The notes beneath the pieces were generated by a model. It was not told the origin of the DNA. It ran no database searches and was given only the letters and a program-made list of their open reading frames with translations. A stretch of DNA of 64,000 nt from Rhodopseudomonas palustris (GTDB taxonomy: Bacteria; Pseudomonadota; Alphaproteobacteria; Rhizobiales; Xanthobacteraceae): positions 1-64,000 of the forward strand of contig NZ_QYYD01000025.1 of the NCBI RefSeq assembly GCF_003591005.1. The letters are read 5' to 3'. A program made the translations under genes and the position numbers. Positions 11,308 through 56,275 of the stretch are shown here, one piece after another; positions within the stretch are counted from its first letter, which is position 1, and every line of letters starts with the position of its first letter.

Positions 11308-11312
11308 TTCCC

Positions 11313-23515: not shown

Positions 23516-24067
23516 CTCCCCGCTGTTGCAATCAAGTCTCCGCCTCCACTGTCGACGACGCGTTGCTTGCAGCGCTGAAGTACGTGGACCCCGGAGCGAC
23601 CTACGCTCCGTTCCTAACGGCGGGACAGTCAACGCGTCGAGGTGGCCCCCGAGCGGGCGTGTGATCGCGGGCCGCGATGGCTCGTTGGACCCCGGCTCGC
23701 GCGGCGCCCGTTGTGCGAAATATTCATCTGGTGATCCGAACTGTCGTTCTCCTGCATCATGGCTCGGCAGCGTGCTGTACAATTGCGCAAGCCATGATCG
23801 GCATCTGTGCACGGACTAGTTAGTTAGTATTGACATTCGTTCGTGATCAGGAGAGGCTTGCGGTAATAGTTGGAGGGAGAGCCGATGCCGGTTCGTCGAA
23901 CGCGACGCAATGCTCGGCCGCTCGGTGTCGCTGATGCGGCCAATCCGTCAGCAACGTGAACGGAGAACATCGGGTGAAGTGATCGCCGCGCCGATCGACA
24001 TCAGCAAGTTGGTACCGGCGGAATCCGAGTTGATTGAGCCGCAAATCGCCTGACGGAGACGGGTCTC
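23516..24067. other. Intergenic region at the left edge of the accessory cluster
   Basis: About 550 bases without a convincing gene. It holds a 9-bp inverted repeat (ATCATGGCT near 23757, AGCCATGAT near 23790), a degenerate copy of the cluster's TetR-type operator (23812-23827), and two small open frames. One is 24 codons (23885-23959) behind a strong GGAGGGA site. The other, in a different frame, ends ...PAESELIEPQIA at 24053, 14 bases before the next gene. They could be the eroded remains of one gene. Confidence 0.5.
23812..23827. promoter_or_regulatory. Degenerate TetR-type operator copy
   Basis: CGGACTA-GT-TAGTTAG matches the cluster consensus TTGACTA-N2-TAGTCAA at 5 of 7 positions in each half. 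It is the weakest of the series and lies about 240 bases before the first ABC gene. Confidence 0.3.
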
Positions 24068-24868
24068 GTGAACATCGCTGTCGCGCCGCCGACGACCACG
24101 CCCTATCTAGAGGTCGACAATCTCAGCAAGGTCTATGCGAGCGTCGACGGCCCGGTCCGCGCGCTCGACCGCGTCTCGTTGCAGCAGCGCCGCGGCGAGT
24201 TCGTGTCGATCGTCGGGCCGAGCGGCTGCGGCAAGAGCACGTTGCTGATGATCGCGGCCGGCCTGGCGTCGCGGTCGGAAGGGCGGGTGTTGGTCGAGGA
24301 CAGGTTGATCGAAGCGCCGCGCACCGATCTCGGCATCGTGTTCCAGAACCACGTGCTTTTGGAATGGCGCACGGCGCTGCAAAACGTGATGCTGCAGGCG
24401 GTGGCCCGCAAGATGGACATGAAGGTCGCCGAGAAGCGCGCGCGCGAACTGCTCGCCGCCGTGGGGCTCGGCGGCTTCGAGAACAAGTATCCAGGCTCGC
24501 TGTCGGGCGGCATGAAACAGCGCGTCTCGATTTGCCGGGCGCTGATCCACGATCCGCCGCATCTGCTGATGGACGAGCCGTTCGGCGCGCTGGACTCGCT
24601 GACGCGGGACCAGCTGGTGCTCGACCTGCAGCGGATCCGCGCCGAGCGTTCGACCGCGGTGCTGTTCATCACTCACAGTATCGCCGAGGCCGTCTTCCTG
24701 TCCGACCGGGTCGTGGTAATGACGCCGCGGCCGGGAAAGATCGATCGCATCATCGACATCGACCTGCCGCGGCCGCGAACGCTGGCGATGCGGGAGTCCC
24801 CGGAGTTCGCACGCTACAGCCACGAGATCCTCGAGGTGTTTCTCGCGCGCGGCGTGATCAAGGAGTAG
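24068..24868 (+). CDS. ABC transporter ATP-binding protein (TauB/SsuB type), system 1
   Basis: A 266-residue ATPase of the nitrate/sulfonate/taurine importer class. Walker A is GPSGCGKST (about 48-56), Q-loop VFQNHVLLEWR, signature LSGGMKQRV, Walker B LLMDEPFGAL, H-loop ITHSIAEAV. GTG start at 24068 with a CGGAGA site. The permease gene follows five bases after its stop. No binding-protein gene lies in this operon, which is unusual for the class. Confidence 0.92.
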   Translation: MNIAVAPPTTTPYLEVDNLSKVYASVDGPVRALDRVSLQQRRGEFVSIVGPSGCGKSTLLMIAAGLASRSEGRVLVEDRLIEAPRTDLGIVFQNHVLLEWRTALQNVMLQAVARKMDMKVAEKRARELLAAVGLGGFENKYPGSLSGGMKQRVSICRALIHDPPHLLMDEPFGALDSLTRDQLVLDLQRIRAERSTAVLFITHSIAEAVFLSDRVVVMTPRPGKIDRIIDIDLPRPRTLAMRESPEFARYSHEILEVFLARGVIKE

Positions 24869-24873
24869 GGGAC

Positions 24874-25725
24874 ATGGCCGACATCGCGACGGGCGCTGCG
24901 CTCTCCATCGAGCAGATCGAGCAGCGGGTTCAGGAACAGACCCGGGCGAAGCGTAAGCGCGACCGCCGCGCCGAGCTGATCTACCCGGTCCTGACCGGCA
25001 TCCTGCTGCTGGTGATCTGGGAGGTCGCGACCCGAGGGTTTCGCGTGCCGGTCTATTTGTTTCCGCCGCCGAGCGTCGTGCTGCAGGCCACCATCGAGAA
25101 CTGGGATCTGCTGCTGCGTGAGAGCTGGATCACCTCCGTCGAGATTCTCGCAGGCTACGCCGTCAGCATCATCGTCGGCATTCCGCTCGCCTTCGCCATC
25201 TTCCGATGGCCGGTGTTCTCAAAGTCGATCTACCCGCTGCTGATCTCGTCGCAGGCGATGCCGAAGGTGGCGGTGGCGCCGCTGTTCGTGATCTGGTTCG
25301 GCTTCGGGCTGGTTCCGAAGGTGTTGATCGCCTTCCTGATCGCGTTTTTTCCGATCGTGATCAACACGGTGATGGGGCTCGCCGCGATCGAACGCGAGAA
25401 GATCTATCTGGCGCAGTCGATGGGGCTGTCGTCGTTCGATACTTTCAGGCTGATCCGGCTGCCGAACGCTTTGCCGTCGATCTTCGCGGGGCTGAAGATC
25501 TCCATCACGCTGGCGGTCGTCGGCGCGGTGGTCGGCGAATTCGTCGGCGGCGACGGCGGGCTCGGCTATCAGTTGATGGTCGCCAATGGCAGTATGAACA
25601 CGCCGCTGCTGTTCGCAGGTCTGGTGGCGTTAACGGTGCTCGGCGTGTTCTTCTTCTGGATCGTCGAGGTCGTCGAGCGGCTGTGCATGCCGCATCAGGA
25701 GAAGATCTCGCCGCCGACGGTGTGA
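24874..25725 (+). CDS. ABC transporter permease (TauC/SsuC type), system 1
   Basis: A 283-residue inner-membrane permease with about six helices and the cytoplasmic EAA loop (GLAAIEREKIYLAQSMGLSSFDTFRLIRLPNALPSIFAGLK). A 45-residue charged cytosolic N-terminus (EQIEQRVQEQTRAKRKRDRRAE) precedes the first helix. ATG 24874 has GGAGTAGGGG upstream. It pairs with the preceding ATPase; the likely receptor is the orphan binding protein at 34034-35074. Confidence 0.92.
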   Translation: MADIATGAALSIEQIEQRVQEQTRAKRKRDRRAELIYPVLTGILLLVIWEVATRGFRVPVYLFPPPSVVLQATIENWDLLLRESWITSVEILAGYAVSIIVGIPLAFAIFRWPVFSKSIYPLLISSQAMPKVAVAPLFVIWFGFGLVPKVLIAFLIAFFPIVINTVMGLAAIEREKIYLAQSMGLSSFDTFRLIRLPNALPSIFAGLKISITLAVVGAVVGEFVGGDGGLGYQLMVANGSMNTPLLFAGLVALTVLGVFFFWIVEVVERLCMPHQEKISPPTV

Positions 25726-25905: not shown

Positions 25906-26664
25906 ATGGCCGATATCTCCACGTCCGCCCGGACGACCAAGCCCCGCAAGTCCGCGCCGGCAACCGCCAAGGCAAAGGCCCCGCGCAAGGTGGCCGGCGG
26001 GCGCGCGAAGGCGGTTAACAGCGCCGGCAACGGCCAGATCGCCACACGGCAGCGCATTCTGAACATCGCCACCAAGGAATTTTCCGCGAAGGGCTACGAC
26101 GGAGCTCGGGTCGACGACATCATGCGCCTCGCGAAGGTCAGCAAGAACCTGATCTACCATTACTTCGGTAGCAAGGAGGGGCTGTTCATCGCGGTGCTCG
26201 AGTCGGCCTATGAGGGCATGCATGCCTACCAGACCGCATGGCCGCTGGAGGTCGCCTCGCCGGTGGACGGCGTTCGCAAGCTGGTCCAATCCACCTTCAA
26301 ATACTGGCACGATTCGCCCGAGTTCATCGGCCTCTTGAACTCCGAGAACTTCCACAAGGGGCGTCATCTGCGGAAATCGAAGGTGACCAAGGCCGGCTAT
26401 TCGGGATTGCTGGCGAATATCAGCGAACTGTTGAAGCAGGGCGAGCGCTCCGGCGATTTCCGTCGCGACGTGGATCCGGTCGAGCTCTACATTTCGATCT
26501 CGGCGCTGGCCTATCACTTCCTGTCCAACCGTTACACGCTCGCTTATCTGCTCGACCGCAAGCTGTCGACCGAAGAGGACATGAAGGCGCGCACCGCGCA
26601 TATCGAGGATCTGATCCTCGGCTACCTGCGCTTTGGAGCCCCCAATTCGGCCGCCAACAAGTAA
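25906..26664 (+). CDS. TetR-family regulator 1
   Basis: A protein of about 252 residues. A Lys/Ala-rich N-terminal extension (about 45 residues) precedes the TetR helix-turn-helix (RQRILNIATKEFSAKGYDGARVDDIMRLAKVSKNLIYHYFGSKEGLF, about 46-93) and a helical ligand domain ending ISALAYHFLSNRYTLAYLL. That ending closely resembles the second TetR in this cluster. Ligand domains of this type are found in the RutR/YcdC relatives. ATG 25906 is chosen as the first ATG; the frame is open further up, and the ribosome site is weak. It is a prime candidate for the regulator that binds the nine similar palindromes. Confidence 0.88.
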   Translation: MADISTSARTTKPRKSAPATAKAKAPRKVAGGRAKAVNSAGNGQIATRQRILNIATKEFSAKGYDGARVDDIMRLAKVSKNLIYHYFGSKEGLFIAVLESAYEGMHAYQTAWPLEVASPVDGVRKLVQSTFKYWHDSPEFIGLLNSENFHKGRHLRKSKVTKAGYSGLLANISELLKQGERSGDFRRDVDPVELYISISALAYHFLSNRYTLAYLLDRKLSTEEDMKARTAHIEDLILGYLRFGAPNSAANK

Positions 26665-26709: not shown

Positions 26710-26783
26710 TATCCTGAATGTTTTGCAGCGGGTGAGCACCGGCTATCGTGCTGGCCGATGGTCTTCGCAATCGGGAGTCCTGC

Positions 26784-27449
26784 TTGGCGTCCACCACCGC
26801 GCTGCTTCGCACCGTCGCCGACAAAGTCGATCCGCAGCATTGCGCGCTGCTGGTGATCGACGTGCAGAACGATTTCGCCGCACCCGGCGGTTTCTTCGAT
26901 CAGATCGGCGCCGACCTGAAAGTGGTCCAGCAGGAGCGCGTTCCCAATCTGATGCGGCTGATCGGGGCCGCTCGCGACGCGGGGGTGCTGGTGATCTTCG
27001 TCCAGGCGATTTACGATCCCGAGCATCTGTCGGACGCGATGCGCGAGCGCAACGCGCGGATCGGCAGCGAGTTGCCCCGCTGCCGCAGCGGCTCGTGGGG
27101 CGCCGAATTCTACCGCGTCGCGCCGGAGCCCGGCGAGCCCGTGGTGATCAAACATCGCTACAGCGCCATGGTCGGGCCGGAACTGCCGGAGCTGTTGCGC
27201 GAGCGCGGCATCCGCAGCCTGCTGCTCACCGGCATCGCCACCGACACTTGCGTCGAGTCCGCCGGTCGCGACGCGTATTTTCGCGATTACTACGTGACGC
27301 TGGTCGGCGATTGCTGCGGGGCTGCCACTGATGAGGATCATCGCGGCGCGCTGAAGCGCTTCCATCGCGACTACGGACCGGTGGTCGACGCCGACGAGGT
27401 GATCTCGGCCTGGCGATCGACGGTCGCCGCGGCGGCGAAGTCCGCCTGA
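26784..27449 (+). CDS. Isochorismatase-like cysteine hydrolase
   Basis: A protein of about 221 residues that probably hydrolyses a C-N bond (amidase, ureidoacrylate or carbamoyl type) rather than isochorismate. The catalytic triad is visible: Asp26 (VIDVQNDFAAPGG), Lys123 (VIKHRYSAM) and Cys156 (IATDTCVESAGRDAYFRDY). RutB, NicF-type maleamate amidases and N-carbamoylsarcosine amidase share this layout. I prefer TTG 26784 (preceded by GGGAG) over GTG 26748; both are possible. Its stop overlaps the next start by one base. It is the first gene of a six-gene unit. Confidence 0.86.
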   Translation: MASTTALLRTVADKVDPQHCALLVIDVQNDFAAPGGFFDQIGADLKVVQQERVPNLMRLIGAARDAGVLVIFVQAIYDPEHLSDAMRERNARIGSELPRCRSGSWGAEFYRVAPEPGEPVVIKHRYSAMVGPELPELLRERGIRSLLLTGIATDTCVESAGRDAYFRDYYVTLVGDCCGAATDEDHRGALKRFHRDYGPVVDADEVISAWRSTVAAAAKSA

Positions 27450-28492
27450 TGGACCTGTATCGCGACCTTTTTGCTCACGGCCTGTTCCGGATGTCGGCCG
27501 ATCGGAGCCACGCGTTTGCGCACACCGCGCTGCGTCGCGCCGCCCCCTGGCGGCTGCTCGCAGCGGCTGCCGATCTGCGCGTCGACGATCCACGGCTTGT
27601 CACGCGCTTTGCGGGCGTCGATCTGCCCAATCCGGTTGGCCTGGCGGCTGGCTTCGACAAGGATGCCGACCTGGTCCCGGCGCTGTCCTGCCTCGGCTTC
27701 GGATTCGTCTGTGTCGGCTCGATCATGCCGGAGCCGCGTATCGGAAATCCATTTCCGCGATTGATGCGCCGTCGCGGCACCGAGTCGATCGTCGACTCGA
27801 TGGGGGTGCCGAGCAAGGGCAGGGCCTACGCGGTCGAGCAGCTGCGCCGTCTTGGCGCGCGCGCTGTACCGGTCATTGCGAATGTCGGGGGCTTCTCGGC
27901 GGACGCGATCGCAGCGGGCGTGAACGAAGTCGCTCCTTATGTCGACCTGGTCGAACTCAGCCTGATGTGCCCGAACGTGCTGCGCGAAGGCGAGGTGTTC
28001 GACGAGATCGGCATGCTGCGCGGCGTGCTCGCGCGCATCGAGGGCCGCGCAGGATCGATCGTGGTACGCGTGCCGAACGACACCAAGAGACTGCCCGACC
28101 GGTTCGCCGAACTGATCGAATTGTGTATCGAGGCCGGCGTCGGCGGCATCAAGGTCGGCGGTGGCCGACGCATCCCAGAGCCGGGACTTGGAACAGGTGC
28201 CGGCACCCTGCATGGCCGCGAAATCTTCGACGCGGCACTGATGAATGTCGAGCGCGCCGCGGAGTTCGCGCGCGGCCGCCTGTCGATCAAGGGCAATGGC
28301 GGCATCAGTTCCGCCGCCGACGTGCTGGCGATGCGGAGCGCGGGCGCGACCTGCGTCGACCTTTATTCGGCCTTCGTGTTCCGCGGCTGGACCATCGCGC
28401 GCGATATCAACCGCGAACTGGCGCCGGTCTGGGCCGCTACGACGTCGACCGCGGCGCCGGCCTTCGGATCGCAGCTCCAGAGCATGGCATGA
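27449..28492 (+). CDS. Dihydroorotate-dehydrogenase-like flavoprotein
   Basis: A 347-residue FMN TIM barrel. The N-terminal helices (LYRDLFAHGLFRMSADRSH), AGFDKDADLV (residues 67-76) and IGNPFPRLMRR resemble class 2 DHODH. KGNGGISSAADVLAMRSAGATCVDLYSAFVFRG is the typical C-terminal phosphate-binding end. The catalytic loop, however, reads LSLMCPNVLREG with Cys174 where class 2 enzymes have Ser in SSPNT; Cys in 'CPN' is the class 1 feature. It is unlikely to be the pyrimidine-pathway PyrD: it sits in a catabolic operon, one base after the isochorismatase-like gene, with an ATGA overlap to the CocE gene. It may act on a related cyclic ureide or imide. Confidence 0.82.
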   Translation: MDLYRDLFAHGLFRMSADRSHAFAHTALRRAAPWRLLAAAADLRVDDPRLVTRFAGVDLPNPVGLAAGFDKDADLVPALSCLGFGFVCVGSIMPEPRIGNPFPRLMRRRGTESIVDSMGVPSKGRAYAVEQLRRLGARAVPVIANVGGFSADAIAAGVNEVAPYVDLVELSLMCPNVLREGEVFDEIGMLRGVLARIEGRAGSIVVRVPNDTKRLPDRFAELIELCIEAGVGGIKVGGGRRIPEPGLGTGAGTLHGREIFDAALMNVERAAEFARGRLSIKGNGGISSAADVLAMRSAGATCVDLYSAFVFRGWTIARDINRELAPVWAATTSTAAPAFGSQLQSMA

Positions 28493-30171
28493 TCGTCGAG
28501 ACCAACGTCATCATCCCGGTGAGCGATGGACACGGCCTGCGTGCCAATGTTTTTCGTCCCGCGGAGGGCGGGCCGCATCCGGTGCTGATGTCGCTTGGCA
28601 TCTACGGCAAGGATATCCATTTCGCCGATGGCTATGAGCTGCCCTGGAAGAAGTTGCAGACGCTCAATCCTGCGATCATCGACGAGGGGTCGAGCGGACG
28701 CTATCTGCGATGGGAGAAGATCGACCCCGAGCGCTGGGTGCCGGACGGCTACGTGGTGATCGCGGTCGACGGTCGCGGCAGCGGGCAGTCACCGGGCTAT
28801 CTCGATCCGTTCTCACCGCGCGAGACGCAGGATTACTACGACGCGATCGAATGGGCCGCGGCGCAGCCGTGGTCGAGCGGCAAGGTCGGGCTGATCGGCA
28901 TTTCCTATCTGTCGATCAAACAGTGGCAGGTCGCCGCACTGCGGCCGCCGCATCTCGCCGCGATCTGCCCATGGGAGGGCGGCAGCGATCTGTATCGCGA
29001 CTGGAGCCACCACGGCGGCATCTTGAGTAACTCGTTTCCGACGGCGTGGCTGCCGCGGCAGGTGCTGCCCAATCAGCACGGCAACGCGCAGACGCATCAT
29101 CGCGATCGCGAGACCGGCCAAACGACCACGGGGCCGGCGCTGAGCGACGATCTGCTGCACGCCAATCGGGCCGACCACGTCGGCGATCTGTTACAACACC
29201 CGCTCGACGATGCGTGGTACCGGCAGCGCTCGCCTGAGCTTGGCCGCATCGAGGTGCCGCTGTTCTCAGCTGGCAATTGGGGCGGCTGCGGGCTGCATTT
29301 GCGCGGCAACATCGAAGGCTTCTGCCGCGCCGGCGCCAAGGACAAATGGCTCCACATGCACATCGGTACGCATTTCGAGAGCTTTTATCTGCCGGCCTAC
29401 ATTGCGCGCCAGAAGCGGTTTTTCGCGCATTTCCTCAAGGGCGAGGCGAACGGGTGGGACCGCGAGCCGCCGATCCGGCTCGAGATCCGCAGTCCGGACG
29501 GCGCGGTCGCGCGCGACGAGACGGAATGGCCGCTCGCCCGCACCGATTGGCAGCGGCACTATCTCGACGCGGCCGCTCAGAGCTTGTCGACCGATGCGCC
29601 CATCGCGGCGGCATCCGCCACCTTCATTGCGATGGGCGACGGTCTCAGTTTCCTGACAGCGCCGTTCGCGGAGGCGACCGAGTTCACCGGTCCGGTGACC
29701 GCCAGGCTGTGGATCGCATCGTCGACCACAGACGCCGACATCTTCGCGACGCTGCGGTTGTTCGCACCGGATGGCAGCGAAGTGGTGTTCGCCGGCGCCA
29801 GCGACATCGAGCCGGTGGCGCGCGGCTGGCTGCGCGCGTCGCATCGCAAACTCGATGCTGCGATGTCGACGACGGTGCGGCCATATCACAGCCACGACGA
29901 GATCCAGAAGCTCGAGCCGGGCCAGCCTTATCTGCTCGACGTCGAGATCTGGCCGACCAGCATCGTCTGCCCGGCGGGCTATCGGCTGGCGTTGACGCTG
30001 CAGGGCCGCGATTACGAGGCGGCCGGCGTGTCGGGGCGCATCCTGCACAATCACGAGCACGACCGGCCGCGCGCCGAATTCGACGGCCGCACCACGATCT
30101 TCACGGGCCCTGGCCACGAGTCCCATCTGCTGCTGCCGCACATCCCGTCGCAGCCCGGAGCCACGCCATGA
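28489..30171 (+). CDS. CocE/NonD family serine hydrolase
   Basis: A 560-residue hydrolase. The alpha/beta-hydrolase part has VVIAVDGRGSGQSPG and the nucleophile Ser139 in GISYLSIKQWQVAA, closely like cocaine esterase (GVSYLGVTQW). The C-terminal jelly-roll (X-Pro dipeptidyl-peptidase C-terminal type) runs from about residue 345 to the end (FTGPVTARLWIASSTTDADIFATLRL). No signal peptide is seen, so it is cytosolic. It overlaps the genes on both sides by ATGA. The substrate is unknown: ester or amide of the compound handled by this cluster. Confidence 0.87.
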   Translation: MIVETNVIIPVSDGHGLRANVFRPAEGGPHPVLMSLGIYGKDIHFADGYELPWKKLQTLNPAIIDEGSSGRYLRWEKIDPERWVPDGYVVIAVDGRGSGQSPGYLDPFSPRETQDYYDAIEWAAAQPWSSGKVGLIGISYLSIKQWQVAALRPPHLAAICPWEGGSDLYRDWSHHGGILSNSFPTAWLPRQVLPNQHGNAQTHHRDRETGQTTTGPALSDDLLHANRADHVGDLLQHPLDDAWYRQRSPELGRIEVPLFSAGNWGGCGLHLRGNIEGFCRAGAKDKWLHMHIGTHFESFYLPAYIARQKRFFAHFLKGEANGWDREPPIRLEIRSPDGAVARDETEWPLARTDWQRHYLDAAAQSLSTDAPIAAASATFIAMGDGLSFLTAPFAEATEFTGPVTARLWIASSTTDADIFATLRLFAPDGSEVVFAGASDIEPVARGWLRASHRKLDAAMSTTVRPYHSHDEIQKLEPGQPYLLDVEIWPTSIVCPAGYRLALTLQGRDYEAAGVSGRILHNHEHDRPRAEFDGRTTIFTGPGHESHLLLPHIPSQPGATP

Positions 30172-31052
30172 AGATGCCGCCGTTCGACTACGCCTGTCCG
30201 ACCACGCTGGACGAGGCGGTGCAACTGCTTGCCGCCAACGACGGCGCCAAGGTGCTGTCCGGCGGGCAGAGCCTGCTGCCGCTGTTGGCGTTCCGCATGG
30301 CGTACCCGCCGTTGCTGGTCGACATCCAGAAGCTGCCCGGCATCGACGCGATCGAGGTGACCGCGGACGGCCTGCGCGTCGGCGCGCGCGTGCGCTGGTG
30401 CCAGATCGAGCAGGACCAGCGGCTGTCGACCGCGCATCCGCTGTTCCAAGCGATGATCGATCACGTCGCGCACTACCAGATCCGCAACCGCGGCACCGTC
30501 GGTGGCAGTCTCGCCCATGCCGACCCGTCGGCGGAAATGCCAGGCTTGGCCCGGGTGTGCGACTGCGAGATCGTCGCGGTCGGCAAGGACGGGCCGCGGG
30601 CCATCAAGGCCGCGGATTTCTTCGTTGCCGCGCTTCAGACCGCGCTGGCGCCGGACGAGATCATCACGGAGGTTCGGTTTCCGCCGTGGCGCCCGGGTCG
30701 GCGCTGGGCGTTTCACGAATTCGCGCGGCGCAAGGGCGACTTCGCCATGGCCGGCGTGGCGGTGTTCTTCGATGTCGACGCAGCCGGCCGGATCGTCGAT
30801 CCACACGTCGGAGCGATCGGCGCGGGCGACACGCCGCTGCGGCTCACCGGGGTTGAACAAGCGCTTGCTGGGCGCATCCTCGACGACGATCTGATTGCGC
30901 GTGCGCGCACGCTGGCGTCGGAGTCAGTCGAGCCTTCCGCCGACATCCACGCATCGGCCGACTATCGCAAATCCCTGATCGGGACGCTGACTGCGCGCGC
31001 GCTCCGCGACGCCGGCGCGCGTAAGGAGAGCTTCGTTGAAAACGCGGGTTGA
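30168..31052 (+). CDS. Molybdenum hydroxylase FAD subunit (CoxM type), set 1
   Basis: A 294-residue FAD-binding medium subunit that passes electrons from the 2Fe-2S subunit to an acceptor. FAD motifs: LSGGQSLLPLLAFRM (about 31-45) and QIRNRGTVGGSLAHADPSAEMP (about 103-124). The CO-dehydrogenase flavoprotein C-terminal domain follows. The start overlaps the CocE stop (ATGA) and its end overlaps the small-subunit gene by 17 bases. Confidence 0.93.
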   Translation: MKMPPFDYACPTTLDEAVQLLAANDGAKVLSGGQSLLPLLAFRMAYPPLLVDIQKLPGIDAIEVTADGLRVGARVRWCQIEQDQRLSTAHPLFQAMIDHVAHYQIRNRGTVGGSLAHADPSAEMPGLARVCDCEIVAVGKDGPRAIKAADFFVAALQTALAPDEIITEVRFPPWRPGRRWAFHEFARRKGDFAMAGVAVFFDVDAAGRIVDPHVGAIGAGDTPLRLTGVEQALAGRILDDDLIARARTLASESVEPSADIHASADYRKSLIGTLTARALRDAGARKESFVENAG

Positions 31053-33953: not shown

Positions 33954-33969
33954 CAGACCAGTTAGTCAA
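33954..33969. promoter_or_regulatory. TetR-type operator before binding protein 1
   Basis: CAGACCA-GT-TAGTCAA. Read on the other strand it is TTGACTA-AC-TGGTCTG, differing at one base from the site at 26694. It lies about 65 bases before the binding-protein start. Confidence 0.7.
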
Positions 33970-35764: not shown

Positions 35765-35780
35765 TTGACTATCTAGTCAA
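35765..35780. promoter_or_regulatory. TetR-type operator before the cupin gene (best copy)
   Basis: TTGACTA-TC-TAGTCAA: both 7-base halves are perfect complements. This copy defines the consensus used for the whole cluster. Confidence 0.8.
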
Positions 35781-44861: not shown

Positions 44862-44877
44862 TTAACTGGATAGTCAA
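44862..44877. promoter_or_regulatory. TetR-type operator before ABC system 2
   Basis: TTAACTG-GA-TAGTCAA, one half perfect and one with two changes, about 70 bases before the ATPase start. An extra isolated half-site TTGACTA lies at 44834. Confidence 0.7.
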
Positions 44878-46560: not shown

Positions 46561-46591
46561 TCGTGCCGTCATCCCGCATCGGAGAGTCATC

Positions 46592-47831: not shown

Positions 47832-50172
47832 TTATCCGAAGGCAGTGACGATCTGCTCCGGCCTGATCGGCGTCGCGTTGAACTCGGCCTTGAGGTGAGA
47901 CAGCGCATCCGACACCGCGTTGGCGATCACCACCGGCGGCGCGATGGCGCTGCCTTCGCCCACTCCCTTGACGCCGTACGGATTCAGCGGTGACGGGTAG
48001 TGCATGTGCTTCAGCTCGAAATTCGGCACGTCGCTGGCGCCCGGCACCAGATAGTCCATGAACGAACCGACCAGCAACTGGCCTTCGGAGTCGTAGCTCA
48101 GTTCCTCGAGAAGCGCGCCGCCGAGGCCCTGCACGGCGCCGCCCTGGATCTGGCCATCGACCAGCATTGGATTTACCACCACGCCGCAATCGTGGACGAT
48201 GACGTATTTCTCGATCTCGACGCGCCCGAGCTCGGCGTCGACCTCGACGATCGCGGCATGGGTCGCATAGGCCCAGGTGACGGTCGGCGGCTCGAAGTAA
48301 GCAGTCTCCTCCAGGCCGGCCGAAACGCCGTCGGGACGCCTGTTGTCCCAGCCGGGCATCGCCGCCTTGGCGATACGCGCCAGCGGAATTTCCTTGCCGG
48401 GCACGCCGAGAAGGCCTACGGCGCCATTGCGCAGCTCGAGATCGCTCGGCGAGCATTCGAGCATGTCGGCGGCGATCGCGAACACCTTCTTCTGCAGCGT
48501 TTCGCTGGCTTTGTGGATGGCACCCGACAAATTCACCGTGCTGCGGCTCGCGATGGTGCCGAAGCCGATCGATATCACGCTGGTGTCGGCCAATGCGACG
48601 ACGACGTCCTCGGGTTTGACCTGCCAGGCATCGGCGACGACCTGTGAGAAGATCGTCTCCATCCCCTGGCCCTGTGGGCAGGCGCCGCCGGCGAGATAGA
48701 GCTTTCCTGACGGGTCGATCCGCACGGTGGCACTCTCGAATGGGCCGACGCCGGTGCCCTCGACGTAGCAGCCGAGCCCGAGGCCGAGATAACGACCTTG
48801 CGCCAGCGCATCGCGCTGCCGCGCACGGAAGGCTTCGACGCCGCCGATCGCGGCCAGCGCCTGTCGCAGGGATTCCGGATAGTCGCCGCTGTCGTAGACG
48901 ATCGGCTCGCCGTCCCGATAGGGCAGGCCGAGGTGATATGGCATCTCGGACGCCGGGATCATGTTGCGCATGCGAACCTCGGCTGGATCGAGGCCGAGTT
49001 CGGCGGCGATCAGATCCATCGCCCGCTCCATCGCGAAGGTCGCTTCGGGACGGCCGGCGCCGCGATAGGGTGCGTTCGGCACCTTGTTGGTGACGGCGAT
49101 CTTGGAGCGGACCGCGAAGTGATCGAACTTGTAGGGGCCGGGCAGATGCACCGCGGTGTTGTAAGCGATGCCGGAGCCGATCGGATTCCATGCGCCGCAA
49201 TCGACCACGAATGTGTCCTGGAACGCCAAGAGGCGGCCGTCATCGTCGAAGCCGAACTCGACATCGTGGACCTGGTCGCGGGAATGGCAGGCACTCATGA
49301 AGTGCTCGTGCCGATCCTCGATCCATTTCACCGGGCGGCCGACTTCGCGTGCCAAATAGGGGATCAGCAGTTCCTCCGGATAGACGTGGCCCTTGACGCC
49401 GAAGCCGCCGCCGACGTCGAGCGCAACGCAGCGGATGCGGGCTTCGGGCATGTCGAGCACGGTCGAGGCTTCGCGGCGGAGCCAATGGATGACCTGGCAG
49501 GCCGACCAGATGCTGATCGAATCGGTGCGCTCGTCGTAGGTCGCGGCAACGCCGCGGCCTTCCATCGGGATCGCGGCATAGCGATGATGATAGAAGCGGC
49601 GAGTCATGCGGCGCGGAGCCTTCGCGAGCGCCGTCGTGACGTCGCCCTTGGCGATCGCGAAGTCGCCGATCAGATTAGTGTCGTACTGCTCGTGCAGGAC
49701 GGCGCTGTCCGCAGTCAGGCCCGCCTCCGGATCGACGACGGCCGGCAGCGGCTCGATCTCCATCGTCACCAGCTCGGCAGCGTCTTCGGCGAGATATCGG
49801 CTCTCCGCAAGGATGACGGCGACGGCTTCGCCGACGTGCCGAACCTTGTCGTACGCAAGCAGCGGCTGCTGCGGGTTGAGAAACGTGTGCTGGACCCGCG
49901 TCGTCCACTTCTTCGGCAAAGACAATTGCGTGTCGGGCACTGGCGGCAGCAGCTTCGCGAGGTCCGGCCCGGAGATCGCGTAGACCACGCCCGGAGACTT
50001 CTGGGCGCGCGACAGATCGACCGACTTGATGCGGCCGTGCGCCACCTGGCTGCGGACGAACGCCGCATGCAGCATCGACGGAAGCTTGAGATCGGCGATG
50101 AACTGTCCCTTGCCGGTCAACAGCCGCTTGTCTTCACGGCGCGGCACCGACTTGCCGATGAACCCGTTCGTC

Positions 50173-50180
<8 letters not shown>
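47832..50180 (-). CDS. Molybdenum hydroxylase large subunit (CoxL type, form II-like), set 3
   Basis: A protein of about 782 residues. N-terminal FIGKSVPRREDKRLLTGKGQFIADL; cofactor region LDVGGGFGVKGHVYPEELL; substrate-loop APYRGAGRPEATFAMERAMD; PQGQGMETIFSQVVADA; active-site Glu in GVKGVGEGS. The YRGAGR loop is the 'form II CoxL' signature, clearly different from sets 1 and 2. Form II enzymes have varied or unknown substrates. ATG 50180 overlaps the small-subunit end by eight bases; an in-frame ATG at 50201 is less likely. Last gene of a six-gene minus-strand unit. Confidence 0.92.
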
Positions 50181-50679
<499 letters not shown>

Positions 50680-50700
50680 CGTAACTCTTTCCGCCCTGGA

Positions 50701-51564
50701 TCAGGCGTGTTCGGACGCGACGCGTTGCAGCACGCGCCGGGTCAACACCTTGGTGAGATGCCGGCGATAGGACTCGCTGCCGTTGCGGTCGGCGCTCGGC
50801 TCGACTGCCTCACTGGCAGCCTGCGCAGCCCTCTCGATCACGGTCGCGTCGAGTGCTTGTCCTTCAAGCGATTGCTCGGCGGCGTGCAGGCGGCTCGACG
50901 CGGGCGACACACCGGCGGTCGCCAGTCGTGCGCTGTGGCAGACGCCATCCTGCATGGTCACCATCGCAGCCACGGCGGCGATAGCAAAATCGCCGCGGCG
51001 GCGCGAAAATTCCTCTACGGCGAACCGCGCATCCGGCGGCATCGCCGGCGCGCGGATGTCGATGAGGATTTCGTCTTCCGCCAGGCTGGTGGTCATCGCG
51101 TCAACAACGAACTCCGCCGCCGGGATAGTTCGTTCGCCCTGCGGCCCCGCCACACGCATCTCGGCTTCGAGCACCTGCAGCACCATCGGGATCTCGGCGG
51201 ATGAATCGGCATTGGCAAGCGAGCCGCCGATCGTTCCGCGGGAGCGGGTGGGCAGATGGCCGACCATCTTGATGGCGGCGTGCAGCAGCGGCAGATCGCG
51301 CGCAATCACAGACGAAAATTCCAGCGTACGCTGCCGCGTCATCGCGCCGATGCGCACGTGGCGGCCGTCCGATTCGATGAAGGCAAGCTCGGGTATCCGG
51401 CCGAGGTCGATCAGGACGTCAGGCGCGACCAGGCGGAAGTTCATCATCGGCAGCAGCGTCTGCCCTCCGGCGAGGAGTCGCGCGTCGCTGCCGTGACGCT
51501 CCAGCAGCGCGAGCGCGTCGGCGATCGTGGTCGGGGCGTGATAATCGAAGGCCGCAGGCTTCAT
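50701..51564 (-). CDS. Molybdenum hydroxylase FAD subunit (CoxM type), set 3
   Basis: A 287-residue FAD subunit with LAGGQTLLPMMNFRLVAP and HLPTRSRGTIGGSLANADSSAEIPM for FAD binding. It is more distant from sets 1 and 2 than they are from each other (for example TRSRG for QIRNRG). It starts 105 bases after the ABC permease stop on the same strand, so it is probably in the same transcript. Confidence 0.92.
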   Translation of the reverse strand: MKPAAFDYHAPTTIADALALLERHGSDARLLAGGQTLLPMMNFRLVAPDVLIDLGRIPELAFIESDGRHVRIGAMTRQRTLEFSSVIARDLPLLHAAIKMVGHLPTRSRGTIGGSLANADSSAEIPMVLQVLEAEMRVAGPQGERTIPAAEFVVDAMTTSLAEDEILIDIRAPAMPPDARFAVEEFSRRRGDFAIAAVAAMVTMQDGVCHSARLATAGVSPASSRLHAAEQSLEGQALDATVIERAAQAASEAVEPSADRNGSESYRRHLTKVLTRRVLQRVASEHA

Positions 51565-51669: not shown

Positions 51670-52449
51670 TCAGTGTCCCTTCTTGGCGCGCTGCGAAACG
51701 TGCCAGGGCAGCATCCAACGCTCGATCCATTCGATGGCGAAGAACATGATGGTGCCGAGAATGCCCAGCACCACAATCGCCGCGAAGGCCCGCGTGCTAT
51801 TGAAGGTCGCCTGGCTGGTGAGGATGACGTAGCCGAGGCCCTGCTCGCCGGCGACGAATTCGCCGACGATAGCGCCGATCAAGGCGAAGGACACGCCGAT
51901 CTTGGCGCCCGCGAACAGGCTCGGCAACGCGTTGGGGAAGCGGACCTTCATCATGATGTCGAGCCGCGAGGCCCGAGCCGATCGCGCCAGGTCGATCATG
52001 TCGTTGTCGATCGCCCGAAGGCCGACGGTGGTGTTGATCACGATCGGGAAGATGGCGATGATCGCCGCAATCGCGATCTTCGGCGCTCCACCGGTGCCCA
52101 GCCAGATCACAAACAGCGGCGCCAGCGCGACTTTCGGGATCGAGTTGGTCGCCACCAGCAGAGTGTAAAAGGTGCGATCAATGAAGCTCGACGACACGAT
52201 GGCGATCGCAGCCAGCACGCCGCCGACCAGCGCGATCATGAAGCCGGCGGTGGTGACATAGAGCGTGTAGAGCGACTGCCGCCCGAAGAACGCCGGGTTG
52301 GCGAAGATATCGGCGATCACGATCGACGGCGCGGGCAGCAGGAAGGCGCGGATGCCGAACAGGTGCACCGACAGCTCCCAGATCGCAGTCAGCGCCGCCA
52401 GCACTACGATGATGGTGCGCGCGTGCTCGGTTTTCCGCCAATAGCTCAC
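51670..52449 (-). CDS. ABC transporter permease (TauC/SsuC type), system 3
   Basis: A protein of about 259 residues with six or so helices, SIPKVALAPLFVIWLGTGG as the conserved central motif and an EAA loop (LRAIDNDMIDLARSARASRLDIMMKVRFPNALPSLFAG). I choose GTG 52449 (VSYWRKTEHART), four bases after the ATPase stop; the frame is open to 52509 within that gene, so a longer, overlapping form is possible. Confidence 0.88.
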   Translation of the reverse strand: MSYWRKTEHARTIIVVLAALTAIWELSVHLFGIRAFLLPAPSIVIADIFANPAFFGRQSLYTLYVTTAGFMIALVGGVLAAIAIVSSSFIDRTFYTLLVATNSIPKVALAPLFVIWLGTGGAPKIAIAAIIAIFPIVINTTVGLRAIDNDMIDLARSARASRLDIMMKVRFPNALPSLFAGAKIGVSFALIGAIVGEFVAGEQGLGYVILTSQATFNSTRAFAAIVVLGILGTIMFFAIEWIERWMLPWHVSQRAKKGH

Positions 52450-52453
52450 CGCG

Positions 52454-53281
52454 TTACTCAGCTTTGACGAGCCCCATCGACGCGAAGAGATGACGGATGT
52501 GCTGGACATATTTGCCGAAGTCCTCGGTTTGACGAATGCTGAGCGGGCGGGGCCGGGGGATATCGATGTCGACGATCTCGGCGATGCGGCCGGGATTGCG
52601 CGCCATCACCACGACGCGGTCGCCGAGATACACGGCTTCGTCGATCCCGTGGGTGATGAAGACGACCGTCTTCCGCGTCTCGTGCCAAAGCCGTTCGAGT
52701 TCCGCGTTCAGGTCGTCGCGTGTCATGGCGTCGAGCGCGCCGAACGGTTCGTCCATCAGCAGCAGATCCGGATCGACGATCAGCGCGCGGCAGATGGCGA
52801 CGCGCTGGCGCATGCCGCCCGACAACTCCCAGGGAAAACGGTTGGCGTAGCCATCGAGACCGTATTCGCGGAGCAGCTTGTGCGCGCGCTCCTGATAGTC
52901 CTTGCGGCGAAGTCCCTTGAACTCCACCAGCATCAGCACGTTATCGAGCACGGTGCGCCAATCGAACAGGACGTCGCGCTGAAACACGATCGCCATGTTC
53001 TCCGGCGGAGCATTGACCGGCTGGTTGCGGATCTTGATCGAACCAGCGCTGATCGGCTGCAGGCCGGCGATGCATTTCAACAGCGTGCTCTTGCCGCAGC
53101 CCGACGGACCGACGATGCTGATGAACTCGCCGGGCGCGATGTCGAGATTGATGTCTTTCAGCGCTGCGATCGGACTTTCGGCACCGTAGCTCTTGTCGAC
53201 GCCGCTGATCGAGATCGAGGCGGAGCCGAGGGATGCGGCCTGCGGCTCGATCGAGCGGGCGCCGGCGGACAGTGCCGTCAT
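52454..53281 (-). CDS. ABC transporter ATP-binding protein (TauB/SsuB type), system 3
   Basis: A 275-residue ATPase. Walker A GPSGCGKST, Q-loop VFQRDVLFDWR, signature LSGGMRQRV, Walker B LLMDEPFGAL, H-loop ITHGIDEAV. ATG 53281 overlaps the binding-protein stop by four bases. The C-terminal RHLFASMGLVKAE is variable. Confidence 0.93.
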   Translation of the reverse strand: MTALSAGARSIEPQAASLGSASISISGVDKSYGAESPIAALKDINLDIAPGEFISIVGPSGCGKSTLLKCIAGLQPISAGSIKIRNQPVNAPPENMAIVFQRDVLFDWRTVLDNVLMLVEFKGLRRKDYQERAHKLLREYGLDGYANRFPWELSGGMRQRVAICRALIVDPDLLLMDEPFGALDAMTRDDLNAELERLWHETRKTVVFITHGIDEAVYLGDRVVVMARNPGRIAEIVDIDIPRPRPLSIRQTEDFGKYVQHIRHLFASMGLVKAE

Positions 53282-54366
53282 GCGCCGACCAGATCGTTGG
53301 TGAAGAAGCCCGAGATGTCGGCGTCGGCCTTGGCCTGGCCAGCCTCCGCCATCATCGCGATGGTGGCCTTCCAATCGTCCGGAGACTGCCAGCCGAGCGG
53401 TTTGCCTTTGGTGTTCTCGGTGTCGACGAATTCCTTGCAGAGCGCGGTCTGGCCTTTGAGGATGTCGAAATTCAGCTGCTTGTCCGGGCGATTGGCCATG
53501 ATGGCGCGTGCGCCTTCGTCGATGTGGGACGGCTCCGCGAAGATGTACTCCCACGAGCGACGCTGATTGGCGACCAATTTGGCGAGCAGATCCTTGCGCT
53601 TTGCGAGCGTGGCATCCGTGGCGATCAGGCCGTAGCTCGGGAACGCGATGCCGACATCGGCGGCCAGCAGGGAGCGGGCCGGCCGCGCCTGCTCGACATA
53701 GGGTTCGCCGAACTCCTTGAGCGACATGAAGCCATCCGCGGCGCCCGATGCATAGGTGGAAACCATCGCGGCCGGCGACACCATCACCACATTGACCTTG
53801 TCCGGCCCTTCGCCGCGCGCGAGCCCGATGCGCTTCAAGTACACGTCGACGAACGGCGCCCAGGGGCTGTTGGCGAAGCAGACGATCTTCTTGCCGGCGA
53901 GTTCCTTCGGTGTCTTGGGCCCGGTCTTGGCGTCCACCATCGTGGCGAGATCGCCCTTGCGCAGGAAGCCGGCAAACGACGTCACCGGCAGTCCCTGCGA
54001 CCGCGCGATCGCCAGCATCCCGAGCTGAACCAGCCCGACATCGACATTGCCGGCGGCGACCAGATTGATGGTGTTGAGCGTGCCGGTTCCGTCCTGGAGG
54101 TCGATATTCAGGCCGTCGTCCTTGAACCAGCCTTTTGCTTTCGACAAATGCAGCGCCGAGTGAACGCCCCATGGCGCGAAATCGACCCGAACCGACAGAG
54201 GCTCTTCGGCCAAGGCCCGCCCACTACGCAGCACGAACGGAGCCGCGAGGGCGCCTCCCAGCAGGGCGCGGCGCGACAGGCCCGGCGCGATTGATCCCAT
54301 CTTGGCTGGCACGGCTTGCTCCCCCATCGCTTTGCTTGGTGACTTCACGGACTTCGAGATTGTCAT
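53278..54366 (-). CDS. ABC transporter substrate-binding protein (NMT1/TauA type), system 3
   Basis: A 362-residue receptor with a twin-arginine signal (GLSRRALLGGALAAPFVLRSG, after a 30-residue lead). The NMT1 fold shows in DFAPWGVHSALHLSKAKGWFKDDGLNIDL and ELAGKKIVCFANSPWAPFVDVYL. First gene of the six-gene operon SBP-ATPase-permease-coxM-coxS-coxL, which links uptake of a compound directly to its hydroxylation. An operator lies 28-47 bases upstream. Confidence 0.9.
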   Translation of the reverse strand: MTISKSVKSPSKAMGEQAVPAKMGSIAPGLSRRALLGGALAAPFVLRSGRALAEEPLSVRVDFAPWGVHSALHLSKAKGWFKDDGLNIDLQDGTGTLNTINLVAAGNVDVGLVQLGMLAIARSQGLPVTSFAGFLRKGDLATMVDAKTGPKTPKELAGKKIVCFANSPWAPFVDVYLKRIGLARGEGPDKVNVVMVSPAAMVSTYASGAADGFMSLKEFGEPYVEQARPARSLLAADVGIAFPSYGLIATDATLAKRKDLLAKLVANQRRSWEYIFAEPSHIDEGARAIMANRPDKQLNFDILKGQTALCKEFVDTENTKGKPLGWQSPDDWKATIAMMAEAGQAKADADISGFFTNDLVGA

Positions 54367-54393: not shown

Positions 54394-54413
54394 TTGACTG
54401 TCTAGTTAGTCAA
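54394..54413. promoter_or_regulatory. TetR-type operator before system 3 (two overlapping registers)
   Basis: TTGACTGTCTAGTTAGTCAA. It can be read as TTGACTG-TC-TAGTTAG or as CTGTCTA-GT-TAGTCAA, each with one good half. Overall it is a TTGACT/AGTCAA inverted repeat with a longer spacer. Confidence 0.65.
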
Positions 54414-54473: not shown

Positions 54474-56237
54474 TCACGCTGCCGCGGACGCAGTGCCGTT
54501 GTTCATCCTGCGCGCGATGTCCTGCACCGCGATGTAGGCGAACACGATCGCCGGTCCCAAGGTGATGCCGGGGCCGGGATAGTTTCCGCCCATCACCGAA
54601 TGCATGTCGTTGCCGCAGGCGTAGAGCCGTTCGATGCGGCTGCCATCGTGACGCAGGACGCAGGCGCTTTCGTCGGTCACAAAGCCCGTCGCGGCGCCGA
54701 TATCACCAGGGAACAGGCGCACTGCATAGAACGGCGCGGTGTCCACTGCGCCGAGGCATGGGTTCGGTCCATGGCTCATATCACCTGCGGTGATACGTTG
54801 ATAATCGGTCGAGCCGCGGCCGAAGTCCTGATCGATTCCGGTGCGGGCAAATTCGTTGAAGCGCTGAACCGTCGCGGTGAGTTCGGCGGGCGCAATGCCC
54901 AATTTGGCGGCAAGCTCGGCGAGAGATTCGGCACGCGTCAAATAGCCATCCCTGATGAAAGGCCCGCGTCCCCAGCGGCCGGGCCGCGCCATGCCGAGAC
55001 CATACTTGCGAAGCGCGGTCTCGTCGGCGATCAGATAGGCGGGAATGGATGGTGAGATCGCGTTGGCGTCGAGCATCCCCTGGGTGAAGGGATGATAAGA
55101 CAACGCCTCGTTGACGAAGCGGCGACCGCTCTGGTTGACGGTGATCGTCCCCGGCCGGCCGCGGTCGAAGATGAAGTGAGGGAACACCGCGGTCTCGCCA
55201 TTGCGGCGCCGGCGCACAGACACCGGCGCCCAGAACGCACTGTCGCGGCCGTCCGCGCCGTAACGGGCGCCGATTCCCGAAAGCAATTCGTGCAACTGAC
55301 CGGTGTGGCCCTGCGCCCCGGGACAGTACTGTGCGACGGGCTGCCGCAGCAGTTCCGCGCGAAGGCGTGGGTGCCGATTGAAGCCGCCGGTGGCGCTGAC
55401 GAGGCCGCCGCGACAAACGAGCGTTCGCGTAACGCCGTCTTGTTCGATGGTCAGCTGCGAAGGACTGCCGTCGCGCAAGTCGATCGCCTTGACCGAGGCA
55501 TTCAACAGCATCGGCACGCCGCGCTCCCGCAGCGACAGCAGCAGCCGCGCCGTGAGCGCATTGCCCATCATCAGCCGAGTGCCGCGACGATGCGACAGTC
55601 GGTCGAGCGCATGACGGGCGAGCAGGCCGGCAGAATGCCGGAAAGCCCGCCAGGAGCGCCCGGCTGAAAGGAAGTTCAGCACGTCCTCCTGATTGACCAT
55701 CATGCCTCCGAGCACCGTGAATTCAGGAATGGGCTCGCGAACAAGATCGAACAGATCGCCGAGTTCGCGGCCGTCGAACGGCATCGCCTCGAGGACGCGG
55801 CCCTTCAGTGTGGCGCCGGGCAGGTCGCTGTTGTAGTCGGGATGCAGCTTTCGGGCGCGAAAGCGCACGTGGGAATGCTGCTCCAGATCGGCGACCGCCT
55901 TCGGTCCATTGGCCAGGAAAGCCAGCCGCATCGATTCGGGAGACTCGTTGCCGACGGAGTGCCGTAGATACAAAGCCGCCTTGTCGATGCTGTCGTCTGC
56001 ACCGACCAGAGCCGCGTGATGCGTATTGGGGATCCAGGCGCTGCCGGCCGAATAGGCGCTCGTGCCGCCGACCCGGTCGGTATGCTCGACCAGCAGGGGC
56101 TTCAGCCCGGCGATCGCGGCGAACAAGGCGGCCGACAAGCCTGCCGCGCCCGCCCCAATGACGATGACGTCGAATGAACCACTCTCGATATCGCCGAGCT
56201 GATGATCTGTTCTCACTGTCGCTTCGGTCCGATTCAC
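54474..56237 (-). CDS. FAD-binding dehydrogenase (fumarate reductase/3-ketosteroid dehydrogenase family)
   Basis: A flavoprotein of about 587 residues. The dinucleotide motif VIVIGAGAAGLSAALFAAIAGLKPLLVEHTDRVGGTSAYSAGSAW lies at about 24-68, and the C-terminal FAD motif GGNYPGPGITLGPAIVFAYIA is typical of the 3-ketosteroid-delta1-dehydrogenase group. It could desaturate or reduce a ring intermediate. GTG 56237 is my choice, 7-9 bases after an AGG; the open frame reaches 56432 but runs through the operator. Single-gene unit. Confidence 0.85.
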   Translation of the reverse strand: MNRTEATVRTDHQLGDIESGSFDVIVIGAGAAGLSAALFAAIAGLKPLLVEHTDRVGGTSAYSAGSAWIPNTHHAALVGADDSIDKAALYLRHSVGNESPESMRLAFLANGPKAVADLEQHSHVRFRARKLHPDYNSDLPGATLKGRVLEAMPFDGRELGDLFDLVREPIPEFTVLGGMMVNQEDVLNFLSAGRSWRAFRHSAGLLARHALDRLSHRRGTRLMMGNALTARLLLSLRERGVPMLLNASVKAIDLRDGSPSQLTIEQDGVTRTLVCRGGLVSATGGFNRHPRLRAELLRQPVAQYCPGAQGHTGQLHELLSGIGARYGADGRDSAFWAPVSVRRRRNGETAVFPHFIFDRGRPGTITVNQSGRRFVNEALSYHPFTQGMLDANAISPSIPAYLIADETALRKYGLGMARPGRWGRGPFIRDGYLTRAESLAELAAKLGIAPAELTATVQRFNEFARTGIDQDFGRGSTDYQRITAGDMSHGPNPCLGAVDTAPFYAVRLFPGDIGAATGFVTDESACVLRHDGSRIERLYACGNDMHSVMGGNYPGPGITLGPAIVFAYIAVQDIARRMNNGTASAAA

Positions 56238-56259
56238 AAACGCACCTGCCAGGTTTCTG

Positions 56260-56275
56260 TTGAACGGACATTCAA
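56260..56275. promoter_or_regulatory. TetR-type operator variant before the FAD dehydrogenase
   Basis: TTGAACG-GA-CATTCAA: same spacing and outer bases as the cluster consensus, with A instead of C at position 5 of each half. The symmetrical change suggests a variant site, possibly for the other TetR protein. Confidence 0.5.

What the first reader, a model, noticed from the sequence alone, without database searches (positions are those of the whole stretch)
23812..56275. One palindromic operator family marks almost every promoter of a 33-kb accessory cluster
The sequence shows nine related palindromes with layout 7-2-7, best copy TTGACTA-TC-TAGTCAA (35765). Others are at 26694, 33954, 36672, 40176, 44862, 54394 (two registers), 56260 (variant) and 23812 (weak). 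Each lies 25-250 bases before a gene or divergent gene pair, and I noticed none in the other 30 kb. Known: the RutR operator of E. coli is TTGACCA-N2-TGGTCAA, same half-site and spacing. Inference: one or both local TetR proteins control the whole region as a single regulon responding to the substrate or an intermediate.
Basis: partly seen in the sequence, partly recalled or inferred. Interest (0 to 1): 0.82.

Follow-up and report, generated by a model that had tools for sequence, protein, structure and literature searches.

The report
Two sister repressors, two related operators
In an environmental bacterium, every inferred promoter of an accessory gene cluster that seems to break down an aromatic or nitrogen-ring compound carries a closely related DNA palindrome, and comparison with related genomes suggests that two sister repressor proteins each read a slightly different version of it; no binding has been tested.

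Summary
The palindromes are real and far beyond chance: 5 sites score 13 or more of 14 against a null mean of 0.03. They are specific to this locus: 3 exact matches in the 5.62-Mb genome, all here. They sit before all 11 transcription units that I infer for an accessory catabolic cluster. The single-regulon reading needs revision. In 296 genomes of the family, the symmetric operator TGTTGACYRNNYRGTCAACA (searched by its core) tracks one local TetR (TetR2, 43949-44692): 10 of 11 TetR2+ genomes versus 29 of 285 others; three or more sites, 8 of 11 versus 0 of 285. Sites 23812, 26694 and 33954 form a second, asymmetric class, YTRACTAACTRGTCNG, that goes with the paralogue TetR1 (25906-26664), including one genome with TetR1 and no TetR2. 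Recognition helices differ consistently (SKNMLYYYF, 21 of 21 rows; VSKNLIYHYF, 7 of 7). Two sub-variants (54394, 56260) are conserved before the third module. Best reading: two, perhaps three, interlocked RutR-like regulons, each probably repressing near the -35 region until a pathway metabolite binds. The layout resembles E. coli RutR's, but neither TetR is RutR. Binding, ligand and substrate are untested.

The parts
23812..23827 (-).
   Evidence: Same class before SBP-ABC1 in G141, G089, G169 and G169's second TetR1 locus, and directly before ABC1 in G135
23989..24053 (+). Apparent 3' remnant of a substrate-binding protein gene; limits approximate
   Evidence: Window 23989-24108 aligns (77%) to the end of the 342-residue gene and the ABC1 start in G141, and 23814-23854 (88%) to its operator/promoter; 134 bases lie between the two pieces here, about 993 in G141
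24068..24868 (+). ABC1 ATPase
   Evidence: Pfam PF00005; NCBIfam matches below cut-offs
24925..25725 (+). ABC1 permease
   Evidence: Pfam PF00528 on the longer ORF; NCBIfam below cut-offs
25906..26664 (+). TetR1, TetR_N + TetR_C_29 (start codon uncertain: 25906 or 25990)
   Evidence: Pfam; 41% identical to TetR2 over 206 residues
26694..26709 (+). TetR1-class operator TTGACTAACTGGTCAG
   Evidence: Identical in G141, G089, G169, G135 before the same gene
26748..27449 (+). Isochorismatase-fold amidohydrolase (RutB/biuret hydrolase-like)
27449..28492 (+). Dihydroorotate-dehydrogenase-like flavoprotein
28489..30171 (+). CocE/NonD-family hydrolase
30150..33802 (+). Xdh1: FAD, 2Fe2S and two-part molybdopterin subunits of a xanthine-dehydrogenase-family hydroxylase
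33954..33969 (-). TetR1-class operator TTGACTAACTGGTCTG (- strand)
   Evidence: Identical 16-mer in G141, G089, G135, G147
34034..35074 (+). SBP1, NMT1-type substrate-binding protein
35180..35707 (-). Cupin
35765..35780 (.). TetR2-class operator TTGACTATCTAGTCAA (cupin promoter)
35847..36620 (-). Aspartate-dehydrogenase family protein
   Evidence: NF009828 and NF009827 above cut-off
36672..36687 (.). TetR2-class operator TTGACTGAATGGTCAA (divergent AspDH/AldDH promoter)
36789..38180 (+). Aldehyde dehydrogenase
38206..39162 (-). alpha/beta hydrolase
39137..40144 (-). Amidohydrolase-2 family, nearest solved relative gamma-resorcylate decarboxylase
40176..40191 (.). TetR2-class operator TTGACCGGGTAGTCAA (divergent decarboxylase / Xdh2-TetR2 promoter)
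40271..43909 (+). Xdh2: FAD (40271-41128), 2Fe2S (within 41073-41609, assigned by eye from the translation), molybdopterin (from about 41606)
43949..44692 (+). TetR2, TetR_N + TetR_C_29, inferred reader of the symmetric operator
44862..44877 (.). TetR2-class operator TTAACTGGATAGTCAA (ABC2 promoter)
44948..47686 (+). ABC2 ATPase, permease, NMT1-type SBP2
47832..51564 (-). Xdh3: molybdopterin, 2Fe2S, FAD subunits
51670..54366 (-). ABC3 permease, ATPase and NMT1-type SBP3
54394..54413 (.). 20-bp composite operator TTGACTGTCTAGTTAGTCAA (two overlapping 7-2-7 registers)
   Evidence: Full in G141, G089, L034; with 2 mismatches in L032 and G182
54474..56237 (-). FAD-dependent oxidoreductase (3-ketosteroid-dehydrogenase-like)
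   Evidence: NF009477 above cut-off
56260..56275 (.). Variant operator TTGAACGGACATTCAA with TG..CA flanks (A in place of C in each half-site)
   Evidence: Same class before this gene in G141, G089, L032, L034, G182; not found in G169 or G243

Best explanation
The cluster carries two interlocked regulons governed by two paralogous, RutR-like TetR repressors. TetR2 (43949-44692), as a dimer, reads the symmetric operator TGTTGACYRNNYRGTCAACA before the cupin, AspDH/AldDH, decarboxylase/Xdh2-TetR2 and ABC2 promoters. TetR1 (25906-26664) reads an asymmetric relative, YTRACTAACTRGTCNG, before ABC1-TetR1, the amidohydrolase-to-Xdh1 operon and SBP1. At several promoters the operator's TTGAC half may serve as the -35 hexamer, so binding would block RNA polymerase; binding of the substrate or an early intermediate in the C-terminal pocket would release the repressor. 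Because each tetR lies in an operon behind an operator of its own class, both are expected to be autoregulated. The third module (54394, 56260) is probably under TetR2 or a further relative. Shown: sites, their conservation, their segregation with each TetR, their location. Inferred: binding, repression, ligand, autoregulation.
For: Chance excluded and locus-specific in the genome. Co-occurrence across 296 family genomes: an exact site in 10 of 11 TetR2+ (E 1e-60) versus 29 of 285 other genomes, Fisher p 5e-9; three or more sites 8 of 11 versus 0 of 285, p 1e-13 (genomes treated as independent, which they are not). In TetR2+ genomes 25 of 28 exact sites lie within about 12 kb of TetR2 on the same contig, 2 lie beside cluster genes on another contig of a split assembly (G243), 1 (G169) is remote. 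The TG..CA flanks, not used for selection, are conserved. TetR1-class sites occur in G135 (TetR1 77%, no TetR2 at E 1e-60) and beside G169's second TetR1; the exact TetR1-class pattern is absent from 15 of 15 regions with TetR2 and no TetR1 and from 396 of 396 other genomes of the order (18 of these are of the same family). Recognition-helix residues are class-specific, 21 of 21 and 7 of 7 rows, and the one intermediate protein (G147, LSKNMLYHYF) has the TetR1 histidine and sits beside a TetR1-class site.
Against: No binding or expression data. G243 has TetR1 but no TetR1-class site on its 8-kb contig (the genes that would carry one are not on it). G135 has two exact symmetric sites elsewhere in its genome without a TetR2. 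Cross-recognition is not excluded: the cupin site in G141 and G089 is an exact TetR2 site and only 1 mismatch from the TetR1 pattern. G147, counted as TetR2+, is as close to TetR1 (47-48% each) and has no exact TetR2 site. -10 elements are weak: strict matches at spacing 16-18 total 13 of 74 promoter orientations, no more than the 13 at spacing 10, and the simple promoter scan found a promoter at only 2 of 9 sites, one of them beside rather than within the operator. Other TetR proteins of the genome could bind too, though 6 of 6 checked (L014-L019) have no site of 13 or more within about 1.5 kb.
Confidence: 0.7

Rival explanations
1. One regulon: a single local TetR (or both interchangeably) binds all sites, and the classes are mere sequence drift.
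For: Half-sites are closely related, the TetRs are 41% identical over 206 residues, and the TetR2 matrix still finds 26694 and, weakly, 33954.
Against: Class and regulator segregate: TetR1-class sites in a genome without TetR2 at the threshold; no exact one in 15 of 15 TetR2-only regions; the asymmetric AACT core and the lack of TG..CA flanks are kept across genera; helix residues differ by class.
Confidence: 0.2
2. The repeats are promoter elements (-35 TTGAC repeated), not operators.
For: TTGAC is the sigma-70 -35 core; at cupin, Xdh2 and SBP3 promoters of several genomes a -10-like hexamer lies 16-18 bases downstream.
Against: The sites keep palindromic symmetry with outer TG and CA flanks, lie between divergent genes, and their presence follows a TetR gene. 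A -35 element explains none of this, although operator and -35 may coincide.
Confidence: 0.05
3. A regulator encoded elsewhere (RutR or another TetR) is the true reader.
For: Layout and half-site resemble the RutR box; the genome has other TetR proteins up to 39% identical to TetR2.
Against: No match to the RutR model at E 1e-20 in this genome; loci L014-L019 carry no site of 13 or more; co-occurrence is with TetR2 and TetR1 orthologues.
Confidence: 0.05

Closest known systems
RutR of Escherichia coli and its RutR box
   Same: TetR fold (an unnamed-function TetR, 3npi, ranks 1-2 and RutR chains rank 3-9 of the PDB fold matches); recognition helix with both lysines; 16-bp 7-2-7 palindrome; the E. 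coli rutA-rutR site TGGACTAAACGGTCAA scores 13/14 and tops the 11-kb region with our matrix; a RutB-like hydrolase lies in the TetR1-class operon.
   Different: Far below the RutR model cut-off (52 and 62 bits against 368); different enzymes; two paralogues with two operator classes; TetR2 operator has conserved TG..CA flanks; ligand unknown.
Picolinate (pic) degradation clusters with the PicC decarboxylase
   Same: Molybdenum hydroxylases plus an amidohydrolase-type decarboxylase. PicC was seen only in a search listing with the start of the abstract (PMC10142695); the rest of the pathway is recalled.
   Different: Aspartate-dehydrogenase homologue, aldehyde dehydrogenase, cupin and three ABC importers have no pic counterpart that I recall; PicC's sequence was not compared.
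Paralogous TetR pairs with diverged operators (general kind)
   Same: Sister repressors in one cluster with related palindromes (general knowledge, recalled).
   Different: Here the split can be followed across genera, with single-regulator loci and one intermediate protein.

Membership tests
TetR family repressors | N-terminal TetR HTH domain | tested here: met
   PF00440 in both proteins; helices in the TetR2 model
TetR family repressors | All-helical C-terminal ligand domain, TetR fold | tested here: met
   PF17938 in both; TetR2 model pLDDT 83, pTM 0.74, best PDB matches are TetR proteins; TetR1 not modelled
TetR family repressors | Ligand-released DNA binding | not testable with these tools
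   Needs binding assays
RutR (TIGR03613) | Score above curated cut-off of 368 bits | tested here: not met
   TetR1 52.1, TetR2 62.0
RutR (TIGR03613) | Neighbouring rut pyrimidine operon | tested here: not met
   RutB-like hydrolase below cut-off (111 against 378 bits); no RutA, C or D model among the listed hits of the 20 cluster proteins given to NCBIfam (lists cut at 25 per protein)
RutR (TIGR03613) | 16-bp 7-2-7 palindrome with GAC-type half-site | tested here: met
   E. coli site found by the same matrix; passages describe an approximately 16-bp palindrome (PMC10891134)
RutR (TIGR03613) | Uracil/thymine as ligand | not tested
   Pocket residues not compared

The most novel reading that the evidence does not exclude
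A RutR-type repressor was duplicated and its operator code split in two within one catabolic cluster. A few recognition-helix changes (NMLYYYF against NLIYHYF, the Tyr/His position being the best candidate) separate a copy reading a symmetric 20-bp operator with a free spacer from a copy reading an asymmetric operator with a fixed AACT core, while a 20-bp two-register operator and a C-to-A variant mark further branches. The result is several nearly orthogonal operators in one island, with a living intermediate (G147).
Probability: 0.35. Interest if true: 0.6.

Novelty: new member of a known kind. Interest (0 to 1): 0.42.

Why it matters
It gives a clean natural record of how duplicated repressors part ways: homologous promoters, two regulators, loci with only one of the two, and an intermediate protein, so the residues that change operator choice can be tested directly. 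It also offers two sensor proteins with their operators to anyone looking for the (unknown) ring compound that this island degrades.

Tried and rejected
RutR itself as reader: no hit at E 1e-20 in this genome. That search was given 32 of the 39 motif-positive genomes (3 TetR2+ and all 29 TetR2-); 2 of 32 have a hit, none over the cut-off, and neither locus has a site of 12/14 beside it; the control search rang in E. coli and Caulobacter. Promoter calls by consensus: weak. Literature: eight searches gave no listed title or abstract start that describes this operator or cluster; they cover open PMC papers only and the lists were cut, so this is no proof that it is unpublished. Of papers I saw search listings with abstract starts, and for PMC10891134 also the 12 passages; none was read whole. 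Plasmid collection: 68 records with TetR2-like proteins at E 1e-40, all under 60% identity, not pursued. tRNA-Gln as an attachment site: no shared word of 13 bases between 57080-57230 and the rest of the window. Substrate: not resolved; nearest solved relatives point to an aromatic or N-heterocyclic acid.

One search scanned 25 regions, without L026.

Full report
Observation. The nine-palindrome family is present at the coordinates given. Scored against TTGAC[TC][AG] on both half-sites, the window holds 3 sites at 14/14, 5 at 13 or more and 10 at 12 or more; 200 Markov resamples of the window give 0, 0.03 and 0.97 on average and never reach the observed counts. One of the ten (42423) is inside a gene. 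In the whole 5.62-Mb genome TTGACYRNNYRGTCAA has 3 exact matches, all in the window; allowing one mismatch there are 11, 5 of them here and 6 in the rest, while the reversed control pattern has 12. The outside sites are therefore what chance gives.

Setting. The region 24.0-56.3 kb encodes three xanthine-dehydrogenase-family hydroxylases, three ABC ATPase/permease pairs, three NMT1-type binding proteins, an amidohydrolase-2 decarboxylase homologue, an aldehyde dehydrogenase, an aspartate-dehydrogenase homologue, a cupin, hydrolases, two flavoproteins and two TetR proteins. The nearest named TetR2 relative is from Rhodopseudomonas infernalis (92%). The cluster is accessory: TetR2 occurs in 3 of 16 genomes of the genus. 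The left neighbour (SAM methyltransferase) and the right-hand HlyD-type gene are 37 kb apart here; in the 9 other genomes of the genus that have both on one contig the gap is about 7-12 kb in seven, 18 kb in one and 30 kb in one. One of the nine, G141, carries its copy of the cluster on another contig. A tRNA-Gln gene (57112-57185) lies at the right edge. G+C stays between 0.63 and 0.68 from 22 to 64 kb.

Coverage. The sites precede the 11 transcription units that I infer from gene order: ABC1-TetR1 (23812), amidohydrolase to Xdh1 (26694), SBP1 (33954), cupin (35765), AspDH and AldDH (36672), decarboxylase and Xdh2-TetR2 (40176), ABC2-SBP2 (44862), SBP3-ABC3-Xdh3 (54394), flavin oxidoreductase (56260).

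Which regulator. The exact symmetric pattern was counted in 296 genomes of the family, and TetR2 was searched in a draw of the same size with the same handles. TetR2 orthologues (E 1e-60 or better) are in 11; 10 of these have an exact site (G147 has none), against 29 of the other 285; three or more sites occur in 8 of 11 and 0 of 285. Of 28 exact sites in TetR2-positive genomes, 25 lie within about 12 kb of TetR2, 2 lie beside cluster genes on a different contig of a fragmented assembly, and 1 (G169) is remote. In addition 15 of 15 loci fetched from named genomes by TetR2 similarity have a 14/14 site, although at least four of them are the same loci as in the family set. Gene order is rearranged between genera, yet sites stay with the same genes. 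A matrix from 36 distinct sites of other genera shows that the conserved operator is longer than the search pattern: TGTTGACYRNNYRGTCAACA, the outer TG and CA not having been used for selection.

Two classes. Sites 23812, 26694 and 33954 do not fit that consensus well: they lack the flanks and have a fixed centre, YTRACTAACTRGTCNG. Copies with at most one mismatch stand before the orthologous genes of G141, G089, G169 and G135, and beside G169's second TetR1 gene. G135 has a TetR1 orthologue (77%) and no TetR2 at the threshold used; it carries three TetR1-class sites at that locus and no exact TetR2-class site there, but two exact symmetric sites elsewhere in its genome that I cannot explain. 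Fifteen regions with TetR2 but no TetR1 in the fetched stretch have no exact TetR1-class site. For ten of the fifteen I did not search the whole genome for TetR1; of the other five, four have no match at E 1e-50 and G071 has one at 46% identity. The exact pattern occurs in none of 396 other genomes of the order. Of 24 loci of more distant TetR1 relatives (42-50% identity, about 1.5 kb each side), 23 have no site of 13/14 or better and no TetR1-class site was seen; the other is G147, which has a TetR1-class one.

Protein side. Recognition helices are constant within each group and differ between them: SKNMLYYYF in 21 of 21 TetR2 rows, VSKNLIYHYF in 7 of 7 TetR1 rows. G147, about equally distant from both (47-48%), has LSKNMLYHYF and a TetR1-class site. 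This is one case only. Both groups keep the lysines that correspond by alignment to K52 and K62 of RutR, which the passages seen in PMC10891134 describe as DNA-contacting.

Sub-variants. 54394 is not a sloppy site: a 20-bp form with two overlapping 7-2-7 registers, TTGACTGNCTAGNCAGTCAA, stands before SBP3 in G141, G089 and L034, and with 2 mismatches in L032 and G182. 56260 is a symmetric C-to-A variant with the TG..CA flanks, kept before the flavin oxidoreductase in 5 other genomes but not found in G169 or G243. G169 and G243 have a third TetR (37% to TetR2) near that gene and different 20-bp-like sites. So the third module may have its own reader; in this genome I cannot say which.

Mode of action. 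At the cupin, Xdh2, decarboxylase and SBP3 promoters a TANNNT-like or similar hexamer is often found 16-18 bases from the operator's TTGAC, so that the half-site could be the -35 element; the strict count does not stand out (13 of 74 at spacing 16-18, 13 of 74 at spacing 10). Repression by occlusion is the usual TetR mechanism (general knowledge) and fits; it is not shown.

Comparison with RutR. The matrix made here picks out the E. coli rutA-rutR intergenic site, TGGACTAAACGGTCAA, as the best of 11 kb, and RutR is the closest functionally named fold relative of the TetR2 model. Membership fails: 52 and 62 bits against a cut-off of 368 and no rut operon. The proteins probably work like RutR at the DNA; what they sense is unknown.

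Substrate. The decarboxylase homologue is nearest to gamma-resorcylate and 5-carboxyvanillate decarboxylases, the amidohydrolase to biuret hydrolase and RutB. With three molybdenum hydroxylases this suggests an aromatic or N-heterocyclic acid. In G135 and G169 the TetR1 neighbourhood has its own decarboxylase, alpha/beta hydrolase, AspDH and cupin homologues (and AldDH in G169), which are missing beside TetR1 in this window, so here the two modules may share the TetR2-controlled set (inference).

Noticed in passing
window 23827-24068: Between the conserved TetR1-class operator and ABC1, relatives G141 and G089 have a complete NMT1-type substrate-binding gene; here about 860 bases are missing and only its 3' end aligns. 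G135 also has no such gene at this place.
   Followed up: yes
window 57112-57185: tRNA-Gln gene at the right edge of the accessory cluster; no 13-base repeat of it elsewhere in the window.
   Followed up: partly
window 31521-33802: The molybdopterin subunit of Xdh1 is encoded as two overlapping genes (498 and 261 residues), as I recall for nicotinate dehydrogenase of Eubacterium barkeri; both parts match in G141 and G089, where I did not check for the split.
   Followed up: partly
window 10977-11320: tmRNA gene with tag ANDNYAPVAQAA, of ARAGORN's starred type (permuted, as I recall the sign).
   Followed up: no
L085/L086 (G169) and L091 (G243): A third TetR-like gene (37% to TetR2) near the flavin oxidoreductase, with divergent 20-bp palindromes such as CTAACTGTCTGGTTAGTCTG.
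   Followed up: partly
window 44834-44849: An extra half-site-like stretch TTGACTAGACAAGCTA lies just upstream of operator 44862.
   Followed up: no
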